Assembly: GCF_023022965.1 (NCBI RefSeq)
Contig: NZ_CP095462.1
Span: forward strand, 3,204,001-3,268,000
Direction of reading: 5' to 3'
DNA: 64,000 bases
Source: Ectobacillus sp. JY-23
GTDB taxonomy: Bacteria > Bacillota > Bacilli > Bacillales > Bacillaceae_G
In this document: positions 8,373 through 36,368 of the stretch, piece by piece
Position numbering within the stretch: the first letter of the stretch is position 1
How the letters are laid out: each line of letters opens with the position of its first letter
Notes under the pieces: generated by a model
What the model was told of the DNA's origin: nothing
Databases searched by the model: none
Seen by the model: only the letters and a program-made list of their open reading frames with translations
Program-made: the position numbers and the translations under genes

Positions 8373-8482
8373 CAGCTCTTATCCCTCAGCACGTTATGCG
8401 CTGCAAGAATTAGCACCGTGCCCATAAATGGGTCGGTTGCCGGGCTTCGTAGGGCTTGTCCCTCCACCTGCTCTTGATAAGA
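8373..8482 (-). promoter_or_regulatory. SAM-I (S-box) riboswitch
   Basis: Read on the minus strand, the leader carries S-box landmarks in order: CTTATCAAGAG, then GGTGGAGGGA, then AAGCCCGGCAACC, then GGTGCTAATTCTTGCAG, then a closing GATAAGAG that pairs with the 5' end to form P1. The terminator follows within 15 bases. In the family, SAM binding stabilises P1 and allows the terminator, so the importer operon is on only when SAM is scarce. Confidence 0.95.
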
Positions 8483-8505
8483 AATTTGATATGAAACTGT
8501 TTTAA

Positions 8506-28402: not shown

Positions 28403-28857
28403 TTGCAGGGTACCTGATCTCAGATTTCCCGTCTCTCATGATCCGCAAGACGTTCTTGCGGGACACCTAACCCCAGATTTACTCTCTCTTGTGGTCTGCG
28501 AGACGTTCTTGCGGGACACCTAACTCCAGATTTACTCTCTCTTGTGGTCTGCGAGACGTTCTTGCGGGGCACCTAACCCCAGATTTACTCTCTCTTGTGG
28601 TCTGCGAGACGTTCTTGCGGGGCACCTAACCCCAGATTTACTCTCTCTTGTGGTCTGCGAGACGTTCTTGCGGGGCACCTAACCCCAGATTTACTCTCTC
28701 TTGTGGTCTGCGAGACGTTCTTGCGGGACACCTAACTCCAGATTTACTCTCTCTTGTGGTCTGCGAGACGTTCTTGCGGGGCACCTAACCCCAGATTTAC
28801 TCTCTCTCATGGTCCGCGAGACGTTCTTGCGGGGCACCTAGCTCTGGGTTCAGCCTT
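28403..28857 (+). repeat. Tandem repeat array, 53-bp unit, about 8.5 copies
   Basis: The core GACGTTCTTGCGGG begins at 28449, 28502, 28555, 28608, 28661, 28714, 28767 and 28820, an exact 53-base period. A more diverged partial unit precedes it from about 28403. The internal copies are nearly identical, and the outer copies vary. Each unit carries a small hairpin: GCAAGA-CGT-TCTTGC is perfect in the first copy and has one G-T wobble (GCGAGA) in the others. The period is not a multiple of three, so the array cannot encode a protein repeat. It has no unique spacers, so it is not CRISPR. Confidence 0.93.
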
Positions 28858-29714: not shown

Positions 29715-29858
29715 CTACTTTTGTATCAAACGAAATTTCTCATTGTGATCGACTTGCGTAATTGTATCATTATGAATGGTAATAGTTATGGAGCCAAAAT
29801 TAATTTTTTTCAACAGCGAAAAAATATATAGCAATTTTTCTTCATCAAGCTTTGCCAC
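29715..29858 (-). CDS. Small YezD-like protein (DUF2292)
   Basis: A 47-residue protein beginning VAKLDEEKLLYIFSLLKKI, then FGSITITIHNDTITQVDHNEKFRL. The pattern (helix, then GSIxItIHnGxItQIe and a basic tail) is that of the DUF2292/YezD family, often found near sulfur metabolism genes. The start is GTG 29858, eight bases after GGGAGG. It is 38 bases downstream of the FbpA-like gene and probably in the same transcript. The function of the family is unknown. Confidence 0.7.
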   Translation of the reverse strand: MAKLDEEKLLYIFSLLKKINFGSITITIHNDTITQVDHNEKFRLIQK

Positions 29859-29896: not shown

Positions 29897-30067
29897 TTAA
29901 GGCTTCATTTTCTTAATAAATCTATACTCTTTTTCAAGTTCGCTGATTGTCCACTCAAACAGATGCTTGGAATCTTTTTTATACACACCTGAAGCAATTA
30001 ATTTTTCAATTAACTGCTGCTTTTTTTGATTAATGGCATCGCGAAGAACATTACCCAGCAGAAACAC
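29897..30067 (-). CDS. FbpA-like small basic protein
   Basis: A basic protein of about 54-56 residues containing NVLRDAINQKKQQLIEKLIASGVYKK, then LFEWTISELEKEYR. This is the pattern of the Fur-regulated basic protein FbpA family, which in B. subtilis helps the FsrA small RNA in the iron-sparing response. No ATG opens this frame. The candidates are GTG at 30067, which overlaps GGAGG, or CTG at 30061, which is five bases after GGAGG. No clear Fur box was seen upstream. Confidence 0.68.
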   Translation of the reverse strand: MFLLGNVLRDAINQKKQQLIEKLIASGVYKKDSKHLFEWTISELEKEYRFIKKMKP

Positions 30068-30138
30068 CTCCATTATTTAATTAATCATATAGGTATAATG
30101 TGAATTAAAAACATGAAAGCAATAAAAACAAGAATACG

Positions 30139-30909
30139 TTACAATATTTTTATTTCTCGCCCATTCATCTGGAATTTTTTGATAAATGTGCAGCACTTTT
30201 CTGCAACAAATTCTTTGTCAAAATCCATAGATGCAACATGATAGGAGTTATATAATGTTACAGTCTCTTTTAGCGGAGATTGAACTTGATTCATAATATA
30301 ATCGCTGTTAGCAGGAGGAACTACATGATCTTCTTTTGATTTAAAAACTAACAGCGGACATGTTATATTTGCGAGCCGTGCACGGGTGTCTTCCATGAGC
30401 CCTAACACCTGGTGTATTGCTTTGATCGGTGCTTTTGCATAAGTGATTTCAAACACACTCTTATCTTTGATATCAGGTGCTCCTTCTTCAATAAAGCGCG
30501 GTTTGTGTATAGAATTAAACGCGTCCATTCCAGGAATGCTCGTCATCGCGGCATTGATTAAAATGACGCCTGCAATGGATGGATGTTTACTGGTGAGGTG
30601 AAGAGCCAGCGTGCCACCCATAGATTGGCCAATTACAAAAATCTTGTTGCAATGCTCACGTAAAAGCTGATAGCCGTCTTCAAGACTGTTGAGCCAATCA
30701 TGATATGTGTATGCTTCCATATCTTCATAATGAGTCCCATGTCCCTTTAGTCTTGGAGCATACACCGTATAGCCTTGTGCTGCAATACATTTCCCTAAAA
30801 ATGCAACGCTTTGTGGCGTCCCAACAAAACCATGTGAGATCAATACACCGATATGATTTCCTTTAAAGAAGAATGGGTGAGCACCTTGTAGGACTGAATA
30901 TGCCCTCAT
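30139..30909 (-). CDS. Alpha/beta hydrolase, carboxylesterase or monoacylglycerol lipase type
   Basis: A 256-residue cytosolic esterase of the Est30/YvaK-like group. ISHGFVGTPQSV forms the oxyanion region. The nucleophile is in GQSMGG (about residue 95), the acid in SKEDHVVP, and the base in NSYHVASMD, completing the triad. Length is typical. The start is ATG 30909 with AAAGGAG before it. The 5' leader carries a hairpin (30938-30969). The natural substrate is unknown. Confidence 0.88.
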   Translation of the reverse strand: MRAYSVLQGAHPFFFKGNHIGVLISHGFVGTPQSVAFLGKCIAAQGYTVYAPRLKGHGTHYEDMEAYTYHDWLNSLEDGYQLLREHCNKIFVIGQSMGGTLALHLTSKHPSIAGVILINAAMTSIPGMDAFNSIHKPRFIEEGAPDIKDKSVFEITYAKAPIKAIHQVLGLMEDTRARLANITCPLLVFKSKEDHVVPPANSDYIMNQVQSPLKETVTLYNSYHVASMDFDKEFVAEKCCTFIKKFQMNGREIKIL

Positions 30910-30937: not shown

Positions 30938-30970
30938 AAGGCACCTATCTTAGAAAGATTAGGTGCCTTT
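30938..30970. terminator. Hairpin in the esterase leader
   Basis: AAGGCACCTA and TAGGTGCCTT form a 10-bp stem, 29 bases upstream of the esterase start. The following T run is weak on either strand. It could be an attenuator or a terminator for a short upstream transcript. Confidence 0.45.
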
Positions 30971-31135
30971 GGTTGACCAATCGGCTTTACTATTAAATTA
31001 ATATCATCTTAAACAAATTATTCCAATAAGTAAAGTACGAATTTGTGGTTTTTTTAATGCAAATTGTTAATCTGTATGGATGAAGGGAGAACATTATCGT
31101 AAAGAAAAATTTACAATCTCAATTTAAAAACCTAG

Positions 31136-31164
31136 TTGACAGATGGGTAAAGTGTGTTTATGAT
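31136..31164 (+). promoter_or_regulatory. ssuB: Sigma-A promoter of the ssu operon
   Basis: TTGACA (31136-31141) and TATGAT (31159-31164) are separated by 17 bases. The predicted transcript would start near 31171, about 225 bases before the first gene, leaving room for both leader hairpins. Confidence 0.85.
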
Positions 31165-31196
31165 GAACCGTAATAGAATTTTATTTTCAAGATGAA

Positions 31197-31250
31197 GGCT
31201 GATCAGACAGACTGAAAGCCCCGGTTCTCTAAAAAAGAGCTGGGGCTTTT
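31197..31250 (+). promoter_or_regulatory. ssu leader element 1: small hairpin overlapping a terminator
   Basis: GGCT (31197-31200), GAT, CAG, loop ACAGA, CTG, AA, AGCC (31217-31220) fold as a two-part hairpin. AGCC is also the first part of the terminator stem AGCCCCGGTTCT (from 31217), which pairs with AGAGCTGGGGCT before TTTTTT. The two folds exclude each other. The same layout recurs 77 bases downstream with different pairing bases. Confidence 0.65.
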
Positions 31251-31273
31251 TTATTTAAACAGAATAGGCAAAT

Positions 31274-31326
31274 GACCGATTGGGCATACCGAAGGTCCTC
31301 AACTATTACAGTTAAGGGCCTTTTTG
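31274..31326 (+). promoter_or_regulatory. ssu leader element 2: covarying copy of element 1
   Basis: GACC (31274-31277), GAT, TGG, loop GCATA, CCG, AA, GGTC (31294-31297) repeat the architecture of element 1. Both paired arms changed in a compensatory way, while GAT, the CA and final A of the loop, and AA are kept. GGTC also starts the second terminator, AAGGTCCTCAAC with GTTAAGGGCCTT and TTTTT. Confidence 0.65.
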
Positions 31327-31394
31327 CGTACCTATAGGATGTGCTTTTTCTGAACATGCAGTCTTACAAAGCTAGTTTGAGGAGGGAAAGGGGA

Positions 31395-32162
31395 ATGAGC
31401 GTTTTTATCCAATCACTGCATAAGACTTTTGTAAAGTCACAACAAAGAACGCAGGTTTTAGAAAATATCAACCTGCATGTAAAGCAAGGGGAATTTGTGA
31501 CTGTTATTGGTCCAAGCGGATGTGGAAAAAGTACTTTATTGAAGTTAATTGCCGGTTTGGATCGAGAATATGAGGGAGAAATTGCTATTCATAATGAGCA
31601 GGTTACAGGGCCGAGTATCAAACAAGGCTTCATTTTTCAAGAGCATCGACTGTTTCCCTGGCTTACAGTAGAAAAAAATATTGCAGCGGATTTATCGCTT
31701 AAGGATGCGAAGGTACGTCGTAGGGTCGATGAACTAATTGAAATTGTGAGGTTAAAAGGCTTTGAGAGAGCATATCCGAAAGAATTGTCAGGAGGGATGT
31801 CCCAGCGGGTTGCAATTGCAAGAGCGTTACTGCGAGATCCAGAGGTCTTATTGCTAGATGAGCCGTTTGGTGCGCTAGATGCCTTCACAAGGACACATTT
31901 ACAAGATGTATTGTTAGATATTTGGAAGCAGAAGCAAACGACGATGATTCTTGTTACACATGATTTAGATGAGTCTATTTATCTGGCAAATCGCGTCGTT
32001 ATTATGAGTGCAAGGCCAGGACAAGTGAGTAATATGATTTCTATAGATTTGCCATATCCTCGTAAAAAAGCAAGTGCAGCGTTTCAGGAGTTTAGGAAAA
32101 AGGTACTAAATGAATTTGAAAAAACAGAAGAACTTCAATTCATTGAAGGCTCGGGCATTTAA
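31395..32162 (+). CDS. ssuB: Alkanesulfonate ABC importer ATPase SsuB
   Basis: A 255-residue ATPase of the nitrate/sulfonate/taurine importer family. Walker [11 protein letters not shown]-loop FQEHRLFPW, signature [15 protein letters not shown], Walker [12 protein letters not shown] and the switch His in VTHDLDES are intact. The start is ATG 31395 with GGAGGGAAAGGGG before it. The open frame extends 18 codons further upstream but lacks a ribosome binding site. First gene of ssuB-ssuA-ssuC-ssuD, the B. subtilis order. Confidence 0.92.
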
Positions 32163-35415: not shown

Positions 35416-35712
35416 GTGAAATCCATGCTGATTGTAGGTGGAGATAACCTAGGTGGAATCACTAAGAAACTACAGCAACAAGGATTTGAGGAAGTCATTC
35501 ATGTTAACGGACGAAAAGCAAAAATGGTTCAAGTGGATATACCTAAAAAAGTCGATATTATATTGGTTCTTACTGATTACATTAACCACAATCTTTCGAG
35601 TGTGATTAAGAAAAAGGCAAGAGAGCAATCAATTCCCATCTGTTTCGCAAGACGTTCTTGGTGTTCCATGATGAAGGAAGTAGAAAAACAAGGTCTTATT
35701 TGTTGCAAATAA
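35416..35712 (+). CDS. DUF2325 family protein
   Basis: A 98-residue cytosolic protein with the Rossmann-like MLIVGGDNLGGITKKL start, GFEEVIHVNGRK, and VDIILVLTDYINHNLSS, then ICFARRSWCSM. This matches DUF2325, a small Firmicutes family of unknown function often near sulfur, iron or redox genes. The start is GTG 35416 after AAGGAGGG. The ssu operon upstream fits the family's frequent sulfur context. Confidence 0.8.
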   Translation: MKSMLIVGGDNLGGITKKLQQQGFEEVIHVNGRKAKMVQVDIPKKVDIILVLTDYINHNLSSVIKKKAREQSIPICFARRSWCSMMKEVEKQGLICCK

Positions 35713-35744
35713 AGAGTAATAACATCTTATGGAGGATGATCGGT

Positions 35745-36368
35745 ATGAATTCAATAATAAATCCCACTAAACAAGTGCAACCGGAGGTACAGAATTTACG
35801 TAAAGAAGAACACCCTGTTAGCCCAGTTTTCTTAAATCGATGGTCTCCGCGCTCTTATTCGGATAAAGCTGTTTCTGATGAAGCGCTATATAGCATATTA
35901 GAGGCAGCACGCTGGGCTCCCTCTGCGTTCAATGATCAACCGTGGAGGTTTATTATTGCAAAAACAGAAAAGCAATTAAAGATTTTTCATGAATTCTTAC
36001 ACCCGTTCAATCGTGCATGGGCGGAAAGCGCACCGATATTGCTCCTTATTGCATCAAGTAAAAAAAGGGATACGGGCGACTTAAACTCAGCGCATGCATT
36101 TGATACAGGAACATCCTGGGGGTATTTAGCAATTCAGGCTACGATATTAGGATTAAGCACACATGCAATTGGAGGGTTTGATAAAGAAAAGGCTCGTCGT
36201 TTGTTGGGCATTTCTGATGAATATGAGCTTCATGTGGTCGTCACAGTTGGCTATCGTGGAGAGAAAGATACACTTGTACAAAGCCTGCAAGAGCGTGAAC
36301 ACCCAAGCATACGAAGGCCGCTGCATGAAAGTATTTTGAATTGCAGCAGTGAAGGATATACAGAATAA
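35745..36368 (+). CDS. Nitroreductase family protein
   Basis: A 207-residue FMN-dependent oxidoreductase of the nitroreductase fold. RWSPRSYSDKAV, EAARWAPSAFNDQPWRFIIA and SWGYLAIQATILGLSTHAIGGFD are the standard FMN-binding blocks. The start is ATG 35745 nine bases after GGAGG. The upstream in-frame extension overlaps DUF2325. It may supply reduced flavin to SsuD, but that is inference from position only. Confidence 0.87.
   Translation: MNSIINPTKQVQPEVQNLRKEEHPVSPVFLNRWSPRSYSDKAVSDEALYSILEAARWAPSAFNDQPWRFIIAKTEKQLKIFHEFLHPFNRAWAESAPILLLIASSKKRDTGDLNSAHAFDTGTSWGYLAIQATILGLSTHAIGGFDKEKARRLLGISDEYELHVVVTVGYRGEKDTLVQSLQEREHPSIRRPLHESILNCSSEGYTE

What the first reader, a model, noticed from the sequence alone, without database searches (positions are those of the whole stretch)
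31171..31330. Tandem covarying hairpin-terminator units in the alkanesulfonate operon leader
Two units, 77 bases apart, share one architecture: N4-GAT-N3-RCAKA-N3-AA-N4, each followed by a terminator whose 5' arm is the last N4. The paired bases differ in both units but pairing is kept (GGCT/AGCC against GACC/GGTC, CAG/CTG against TGG/CCG). The unpaired bases GAT, CA, A and AA stay the same. Compensatory change with conserved unpaired bases is the signature of a selected RNA fold, and the overlap with two successive terminators suggests a tandem attenuator. I do not recognise a named riboswitch. A ligand linked to sulfur, such as a sulfonate, sulfite, cysteine or its precursor, would fit the operon, but this is inference.
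Basis: partly seen in the sequence, partly recalled or inferred. Interest (0 to 1): 0.72.

Follow-up and report, generated by a model that had tools for sequence, protein, structure and literature searches.

The report
Sulfur-gene RNA switch tied to YezD
A tiny RNA hairpin that competes with a stop signal sits before many sulfur-uptake genes in Bacillus-like bacteria, and in the genomes searched it goes almost always with YezD, a small protein of unknown function that is probably its partner.

Summary
Two hairpins in the ssu leader (31197-31220, 31274-31297) each overlap an intrinsic terminator. A third copy lies about 200 bases away on the other strand (30962-30988), before est-fbpA-yezD. The refined motif is a 3-4 bp outer stem, an asymmetric 5'-GA/3'-A internal loop, a 4 bp covarying inner stem and a variable 4-5 nt loop, its 3' arm shared with a terminator. 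No Rfam family reached its cut-off at the element.

The motif precedes ssu, cysH-sat, sulfate-binding, TauE/SafE, ssuD, ssuE and yezD genes, among others. In 397 genomes, 100 of 103 with a strong hit carry YezD (DUF2292), against 88 of 294 others. With a broader model, among genomes lacking first-model hits, 26 of 26 sampled YezD-positive ones had the motif and 0 of 25 YezD-negative ones did. YezD is sometimes unlinked to any copy found.

Best explanation: the hairpin is an antiterminator that YezD binds and stabilises, probably when sulfur is short. Covariation, terminator overlap and co-inheritance are shown here; YezD-RNA binding, the sign of the effect and the signal are inferred. A metabolite riboswitch is less likely. 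Literature searches covered only an open-licence library.

The parts
31136..31164 (+). Predicted promoter of the ssu operon (TTGACA, 17 nt, TATGAT)
   Evidence: consensus match, 11 of 12; not above the chance count for the region
31197..31220 (+). Unit 1: antiterminator hairpin, 4 bp outer stem, GA/A internal loop, 4 bp inner stem (U-A, C-G, A-U, G-C), loop ACAGA
   Evidence: R2 match 31195-31222
31214..31254 (+). Terminator 1; its 5' arm contains the 3' outer arm of unit 1
   Evidence: -23.8 kcal/mol
31274..31297 (+). Unit 2: antiterminator hairpin of the same design, loop GCATA
   Evidence: R2 match 31272-31299
31291..31326 (+). Terminator 2; its 5' arm contains the 3' outer arm of unit 2
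   Evidence: -15.0 kcal/mol
31395..32162 (+). ssuB, ABC transporter ATPase
   Evidence: PF00005
32169..33191 (+). ssuA, substrate-binding protein (NMT1-like)
   Evidence: PF09084, PF13379
33203..34057 (+). ssuC, permease
   Evidence: PF00528
34075..35211 (+). ssuD-like luciferase-family monooxygenase
   Evidence: PF00296
30962..30988 (-). Unit 3: element in the leader of the divergent operon est-fbpA-yezD
   Evidence: E 1.3e-6
30938..30969 (-). Terminator 3, 5' arm shared with unit 3; short U tract (CCTTATT), so it failed my 9-pair automatic rule
   Evidence: -18.0 kcal/mol; L050 in the list below 9
30139..30909 (-). est, alpha/beta hydrolase (carboxylesterase-like)
   Evidence: PF12146
29897..30073 (-). 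FbpA-like small basic protein, 58 aa
   Evidence: PF13076, 2e-19
29715..29858 (-). yezD (DUF2292), 47 aa, GTG start: proposed RNA-binding antiterminator
   Evidence: PF10055, 2.5e-14

Best explanation
Each unit is a protein-dependent antiterminator. RNA polymerase transcribes the 24-nt hairpin first. If nothing holds it, its 3' arm is taken into the stronger terminator that follows and transcription stops. When the small protein YezD (DUF2292) is present and active, probably under sulfur limitation, it binds the hairpin at the GA/A internal loop, the terminator cannot form and the sulfur operon is read. Two units in series, as in the ssu leader here, give two gates. yezD often lies under its own element (element-yezD) or just before one (yezD-element-cysH), giving positive feedback or feed-forward. 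Shown by computation: the motif, its covariation, its overlap with terminators, the sulfur regulon, and the close co-inheritance with YezD including unlinked cases. Inferred: direct YezD binding, the sign of the effect, and the signal.
For: Covariation: in 51 non-redundant elements 5 of 7 pairs change on both sides, score 0.608 against 0.315 in shuffles (0 of 500) and at most 0.22 when slid (rows had been chosen for pairing). Pairing test not conditioned on pairing. Terminator overlap: 105 of 112 hits against 5.1% at random. YezD co-occurrence: 100 of 103 strong-element genomes against 88 of 294 others; inside ATP-sulfurylase-positive genomes 99 of 102 against 85 of 222 (the element also goes with ATP sulfurylase itself, 102 of 103 against 222 of 294, a weaker link); by genus 41 of 42 against 27 of 93, genera counted by hand. 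YezD-positive genomes without first-model hits were sampled with model R2: 26 of 26 have the element, while 0 of 25 YezD-negative, equally R1-negative genomes do; in 6 of the 26 the hit equals a row of the model's alignment. Outside the order, the 2 genomes with hits, of 148 others searched, both have YezD. A search by YezD protein alone gave 39 named loci; 31 have an element 100-300 nt upstream of yezD on the same strand and 38 have an R2 hit within 6 kb. In G119, G224 and G266 the element is before cysH and yezD is on another contig, and the B. subtilis-sized genome G427 has yezD about 170 kb from its two elements, so YezD is not merely a regulon member. FbpA, a co-operonic candidate, is less tied: 45 of 56 against 89 of 173, while YezD in the same genomes is 55 of 56 against 46 of 173. 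In B. subtilis yezD is listed with ssuABCD and yitJ in a set of 68 genes in which the authors found sulfur metabolism enriched (PMC3862929, passages).
Against: No binding or termination data. YezD is not strongly basic (pI 6.7 to 9.2). No convincing solved relative was found and structure prediction failed and was then switched off, so an RNA-binding fold could not be tested. G348 has a clear element with terminator and no DUF2292 was detected; G311 also scored without YezD and its hits were not inspected; G215's hit has no terminator and looks like chance. L231 (Halalkalibacterium) has YezD without an element within 6 kb, and G434 has weak DUF2292 matches without one found. Of four plasmid yezD regions examined, two have the element just after yezD; the other two, near-identical Priestia plasmids, have only an opposite-strand match without terminator. 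Genomes are related by descent, so the p-values overstate the evidence.
Confidence: 0.72

Rival explanations
1. The hairpin is the aptamer of a very small riboswitch that reads a sulfur metabolite (cysteine, O-acetylserine, sulfide or a sulfonate) without a protein; YezD is just a co-regulated gene.
For: Strong sulfur regulon, conserved unpaired GA/A, and attenuator architecture like known riboswitches. G348 has an element and no detected YezD.
Against: Only three conserved unpaired bases in a 21-24 nt hairpin with a variable loop. A riboswitch needs no partner, yet the element is rare without YezD, also where yezD itself has no element found near it (G119, G224, G266, G427).
Confidence: 0.1
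2. Another factor binds the hairpin (an FbpA/FbpB-like small protein, or a broadly conserved protein) and YezD acts upstream, for example as the sulfur sensor or as its cofactor.
For: An FbpA-like ORF lies between element and yezD in the window and one just below the Pfam cut-off in the B. pumilus group (L226, 20.9 of 22 bits). FbpB-like ORFs follow the element in Bacillus. A review says Fbp proteins are suggested RNA chaperones and that there is no evidence for FbpB binding RNA (PMC7430163 passages). The window's FbpA is more basic than YezD (pI 9.5).
Against: FbpA is missing in 11 of 56 strong-element genomes of the 229-genome subset and present in 89 of 173 without. In the Neobacillus loci printed I saw no FbpA ORF between element and yezD (by eye).
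Confidence: 0.13
3. The hairpins are chance by-products of strong terminators that merely separate genes, with no regulation.
For: Terminators are common and short hairpins arise by chance.
Against: Covariation and the loop-class controls; strong hits in 42 genera (hand count); 26 of 26 against 0 of 25.
Confidence: 0.02

Closest known systems
BglG/SacY/LicT/GlcT antiterminators and their RAT hairpins
   Same: Short hairpin whose 3' part overlaps a terminator, held by an RNA-binding protein to allow read-through (mechanism described in PMC7430163 passages and PMC8934654 introduction).
   Different: RAT is about 29 nt with two internal loops (recalled); here one GA/A loop in 21-24 nt. YezD is a protein of roughly 47-60 aa matching only DUF2292 in Pfam, and the genes are for sulfur, not sugar.
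ANTAR proteins (NasR, EutV, AmiR) and dual hexaloop motifs
   Same: Tandem hairpins, one overlapping the terminator stem (PMC8934654 introduction).
   Different: ANTAR needs hexaloops with A1 and G4; here loops are 4-5 nt and variable, and 0 of 166 elements with a 4-nt loop fit A1/G4 even if the last inner pair is opened; the 45 with 5-nt loops were not counted. Each terminator has one hairpin and single units are common.
Termination control of the B. subtilis ssu operon (van der Ploeg and others 2001, recalled by title only, paper not held)
   Same: Same operon, two levels of control.
   Different: I could not read it; in the papers I opened I found no RNA motif, wide regulon or YezD link.
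S-box (SAM) riboswitch
   Same: Attenuator of sulfur genes in such bacteria; one lies in this window at 8376-8483.
   Different: The S-box model has 108 positions and binds SAM (recalled); no match over the element here.
CymR repressor
   Same: Controls ssu and other cysteine-related genes in B. subtilis (PMC2743287 passages).
   Different: DNA-level control; the element would act after initiation. CymR-like boxes upstream of several elements were seen by eye only, against a recalled consensus.

Membership tests
BglG/LicT-type RAT antiterminator | Hairpin overlapping an intrinsic terminator | tested here: met
   105 of 112 hits
BglG/LicT-type RAT antiterminator | RAT sequence and two internal loops (recalled definition) | tested here: not met
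   one GA/A loop
BglG/LicT-type RAT antiterminator | Cognate protein with RNA-binding domain and two PRDs | tested here: not met
   the tied protein is DUF2292, 47 aa in the window
ANTAR dual hexaloop | Hexaloops with A at 1 and G at 4 | tested here: not met
   0 of 166 elements with a 4-nt loop; 45 with 5-nt loops not counted
ANTAR dual hexaloop | Two hairpins per terminator | tested here: not met
   one hairpin per terminator in the window and at the sites printed
Known Rfam family, including SAM riboswitches and T-box | Score at or above the family's gathering cut-off | tested here: not met
   no match over the element in the window or in 9 relatives; best sub-threshold NsiR1, 28.7 of 39 bits
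Metabolite riboswitch (works like) | Ligand binds RNA without protein | not testable with these tools
   needs in-line probing; co-inheritance with YezD argues against
Protein-dependent antitermination (works like) | Protein binds the antiterminator and raises read-through | not testable with these tools
   inferred
YezD / DUF2292 family | PF10055 match over the curated cut-off | tested here: met
   window 29715-29858, 53 bits against 22

The most novel reading that the evidence does not exclude
YezD (DUF2292), a protein family of unknown function, is the founding member of a new class of very small RNA-binding antiterminators. With its GA/A hairpin it forms a global sulfur-assimilation regulon across Bacillales and beyond, B. 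subtilis included. In Neobacillus and Priestia a Cys-rich leader peptide ahead of yezD may supply the cysteine signal.
Probability: 0.65. Interest if true: 0.9.

Novelty: new variant of a known kind. Interest (0 to 1): 0.84.

Why it matters
It gives a testable function to a widespread small protein of unknown function and supplies a specific RNA element and partner for termination-level control of sulfur genes. It links ssu, cysH-sat, sulfate uptake and TauE/SafE transport into one RNA regulon in many genera. The first test can be done in B. subtilis 168. If true, a protein of about 50 residues acting as a sequence-specific antiterminator would be unusually small and useful for engineering.

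Tried and rejected
Small-molecule riboswitch: kept as a rival, less likely for the reasons above. ANTAR and RAT membership: tested and not met. FbpA as main partner: weaker association. R1 hit before atpD in the own genome (L052) and the G215 hit (L147): no terminator, treated as chance. Priestia plasmid matches (L304, L305): opposite strand, no terminator, not counted for the reading. Weak R1 hits (E 0.01 to 0.5) show no link to YezD (21 of 36) and were not used. Rfam NsiR1 resemblance: below cut-off. PDB hits for YezD: designed or repeat proteins matched over short stretches, treated as artefacts.

Rows dropped: one search examined 117 R1-hit loci; one (L115) gave no recognisable unit and four were duplicates, leaving 112. 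For the alignment of model R2 I dropped L082 before printing, one T-A row by eye and five of six rows without the usual outer C-G pair (L183 was kept), and left out one printed C-G row by oversight. In one search the own genome's unit 2 was not listed under the stricter filters, although one search finds it.

Limits: genome collections are samples. Genus counts, the E 0.01 split and the genome lists were copied by hand from printed lists; which 229 genomes held was inferred from the handle numbers. Many loci were fetched by the RNA model itself, so the regulon tally (135 proteins of 167 elements in loci L009-L231) is not unbiased, and clusters are named from one representative each; L193-L231 and the plasmid regions were fetched by YezD protein. 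Of the 12 plasmid hits (11 distinct records) 4 regions were examined. Of 67 YezD-positive, R1-negative genomes 26 were given, chosen by hand at intervals; the 25 YezD-negative ones were chosen by hand from R1-negative, ATP-sulfurylase-positive genomes. Of 39 YezD loci 31 were put into the alignment for structure prediction.

Full report
1. What is there. The ssu leader runs from a promoter-like site (31136-31164) to the ssuB start at 31395. It holds two hairpins of one design at 31197 and 31274, each running into a terminator. No Rfam family reaches its cut-off there or at the elements of nine relatives. The operon codes for an ABC ATPase, an NMT1/SsuA-type binding protein, a permease and a luciferase-like monooxygenase, so the alkanesulfonate label is reasonable.

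2. Relatives. Leaders of the orthologous operon in related genomes carry the same hairpin and terminator with other sequences, mostly RGCYGAUCGG-N4-CCGAARGC; six of the leaders that I printed had no GAT/AA unit, one of which (L023) has the C-G class described below. A first covariance model R1 from 16 sequences found 8 sites in the own genome, of which L052 before atpD has no terminator by eye. It gave hits at E up to 0.5 in 139 of 397 genomes of the order, up to 10 per genome. The other own-genome sites precede ssu (two), est-fbpA-yezD, an FMN-reductase-like gene (by eye) followed by a luciferase-family monooxygenase, a TauE/SafE-type gene, an alkanesulfonate monooxygenase and a sulfate-binding protein. 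R2 adds the cysH leader and a PALP-family, threonine-synthase-like gene.

3. The motif refined. Energy folding and variants show that the T of GAT pairs with the first A of AA. Re-scanning with a two-base/one-base internal loop, GA/A accounts for 214 of 500 sites with matching stems and terminator, the next class 19 (many loci had been fetched by the model). The closing pair is U-A in 182, C-G in 29 and U-G in 3 (the last look like chance). In 51 non-redundant elements 5 of 7 pairs change on both sides. In loci fetched only by YezD protein the GAT/AA class holds 47 of 394 structured sites out of 1024 possible classes, next 8, and the test not conditioned on pairing gives 33 of 129 against 4 of 708.

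4. Attenuation. Of 112 distinct R1 sites not selected for it, 105 share their 3' arm with a terminator of at least 9 pairs, against 287 of 5600 random positions. Of the 7 below that mark, two are own-genome sites with visible terminators but short U tracts (L048 and L050, the latter being the window's third element), two look like chance (L052, L147) and three were not examined further (L117, L120, L144). Antiterminators are -8.1 to -9.6 kcal/mol, terminators -15.0 to -24.8, so the default should be termination and a factor must hold the hairpin.

5. The partner. The window's third element precedes est, an FbpA-like protein and a 47-aa DUF2292 protein, YezD. DUF2292 is in 188 of the same 397 genomes. 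Of 103 genomes with a strong element (E up to 0.01), 100 have it, against 88 of 294; within ATP-sulfurylase-positive genomes 99 of 102 against 85 of 222. YezD-positive genomes that lacked an R1 hit turned out to have the C-G class, often as yezD, then the element within tens of bases, then cysH (PAPS reductase by Pfam in the own genome and G119). Model R2 found the element in 26 of 26 such genomes tested and in 0 of 25 YezD-negative, R1-negative ones. In 6 of the 26 the hit equals a training row. Of 25 units checked, 22 overlap a terminator of at least 9 pairs and three have 7 or 8; the 26th, G266, has 12. By the printed coordinates, 20 of the 26 lie within 200 nt downstream of the yezD match, 3 within 3-5 kb, and 3 on a different contig; in those 3 the element precedes a cysH- and sat-like gene pair (Pfam for G119 only). 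The two genomes outside the order with R1 hits also have YezD, and a third genome of their family without the element has none. Of five further genomes of the phylum given, two have DUF2292: G446, with a C-G class element near it, and G434, weakly and without one found. Named examples: Priestia, Neobacillus, Peribacillus, Metabacillus, Alkalicoccobacillus and the B. pumilus group. On a Cytobacillus spongiae plasmid the order is YezD, element, phosphoadenylyl-sulfate reductase, phosphate transporter, sat, cysC; on a Niallia plasmid the element follows TauE/SafE and YezD. Two near-identical Priestia plasmid regions have only an opposite-strand match without terminator.

6. B. subtilis. G427 is one contig of 4,215,606 bases, the length I recall for strain 168. 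It has elements at 959,236-959,262 before an FbpB-family ORF and at 961,292-961,318 before an SsuB-like ABC ATPase, and one YezD at 787,745 with no element in the 3 kb around it. Papers (passages only): ssuBACD-ygaN belongs to the CymR regulon (PMC2743287); yezD stands with ssuABCD and yitJ in a table of 68 genes, and the text notes enrichment of sulfur metabolism (PMC3862929); yezD is listed as unknown, and its deletion did not reduce survival in deep starvation (PMC6385201); listed as unknown also in PMC10714963.

7. Regulon. Among 135 downstream proteins from all loci, clusters named from one representative each are SsuB/MetN-type ATPases 29, sulfate-binding proteins 26, TauE/SafE 20, YezD 8, SsuE 6, SsuA-like 6, SsuD 5, threonine synthase 4, FbpB-like 3, LysR 3, Rrf2 (CymR-like, below the CymR cut-off) 3, and single cases such as an ATPase with NIL domain and a homocysteine methyltransferase/MTHFR; some clusters and singletons have no clear sulfur link.

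8. Mechanism and doubts. Co-inheritance in trans, autoregulatory placement and geometry point to YezD holding the antiterminator. It remains possible that YezD acts through another protein or that a metabolite binds the RNA. Exceptions are G348 (element, no YezD detected), G311 (not inspected), L231 and G434 (YezD, no element found). YezD is not strongly basic and its structure could not be predicted.

9. Novelty. Searches of the open-licence library for YezD, DUF2292, ssuB leaders, antiterminators with sulfur, and RNA motifs with cysH listed no paper that I could see describing this element or giving YezD a function; only eight of the listed papers were opened, in passages or sections. Most subscription papers are not held, so prior description cannot be excluded; the 2001 work on ssu termination, recalled by title, is the most likely place.

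Noticed in passing
L193-L219 (Neobacillus, Priestia and relatives), about 105-160 nt upstream of yezD: A short conserved ORF between element and yezD codes for M-x-(F/Y)-P-I-S-K-C-S-P-H-C-C or a Cys-containing variant in 20 of 28 loci scanned, with changes at third codon positions: possibly a cysteine-sensing leader peptide.
   Followed up: partly
window 8376-8483 (-): SAM riboswitch (S-box), 88.7 bits.
   Followed up: no
window 28448-28840: Tandem array of a 53-base unit, 7.4 copies, 97% matches.
   Followed up: no
window 29897-30073 (-); L104, L298: FbpA- and FbpB-family small proteins, known from iron regulation in B. subtilis, sit inside this sulfur RNA regulon.
   Followed up: partly
L297 position 416 (G000:C1 about 3641310): A C-G class element precedes a PALP-family, threonine-synthase-like gene in the own genome; a threonine synthase cluster also follows elements in L127, L133, L136 and L139.
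   Followed up: partly
L105 (G348:C6): Clear element with terminator before an NADPH-FMN reductase in a genome where no DUF2292 was detected.
   Followed up: partly
window 35416-36368: A DUF2325 protein and a nitroreductase follow the ssu operon on the same strand.
   Followed up: no
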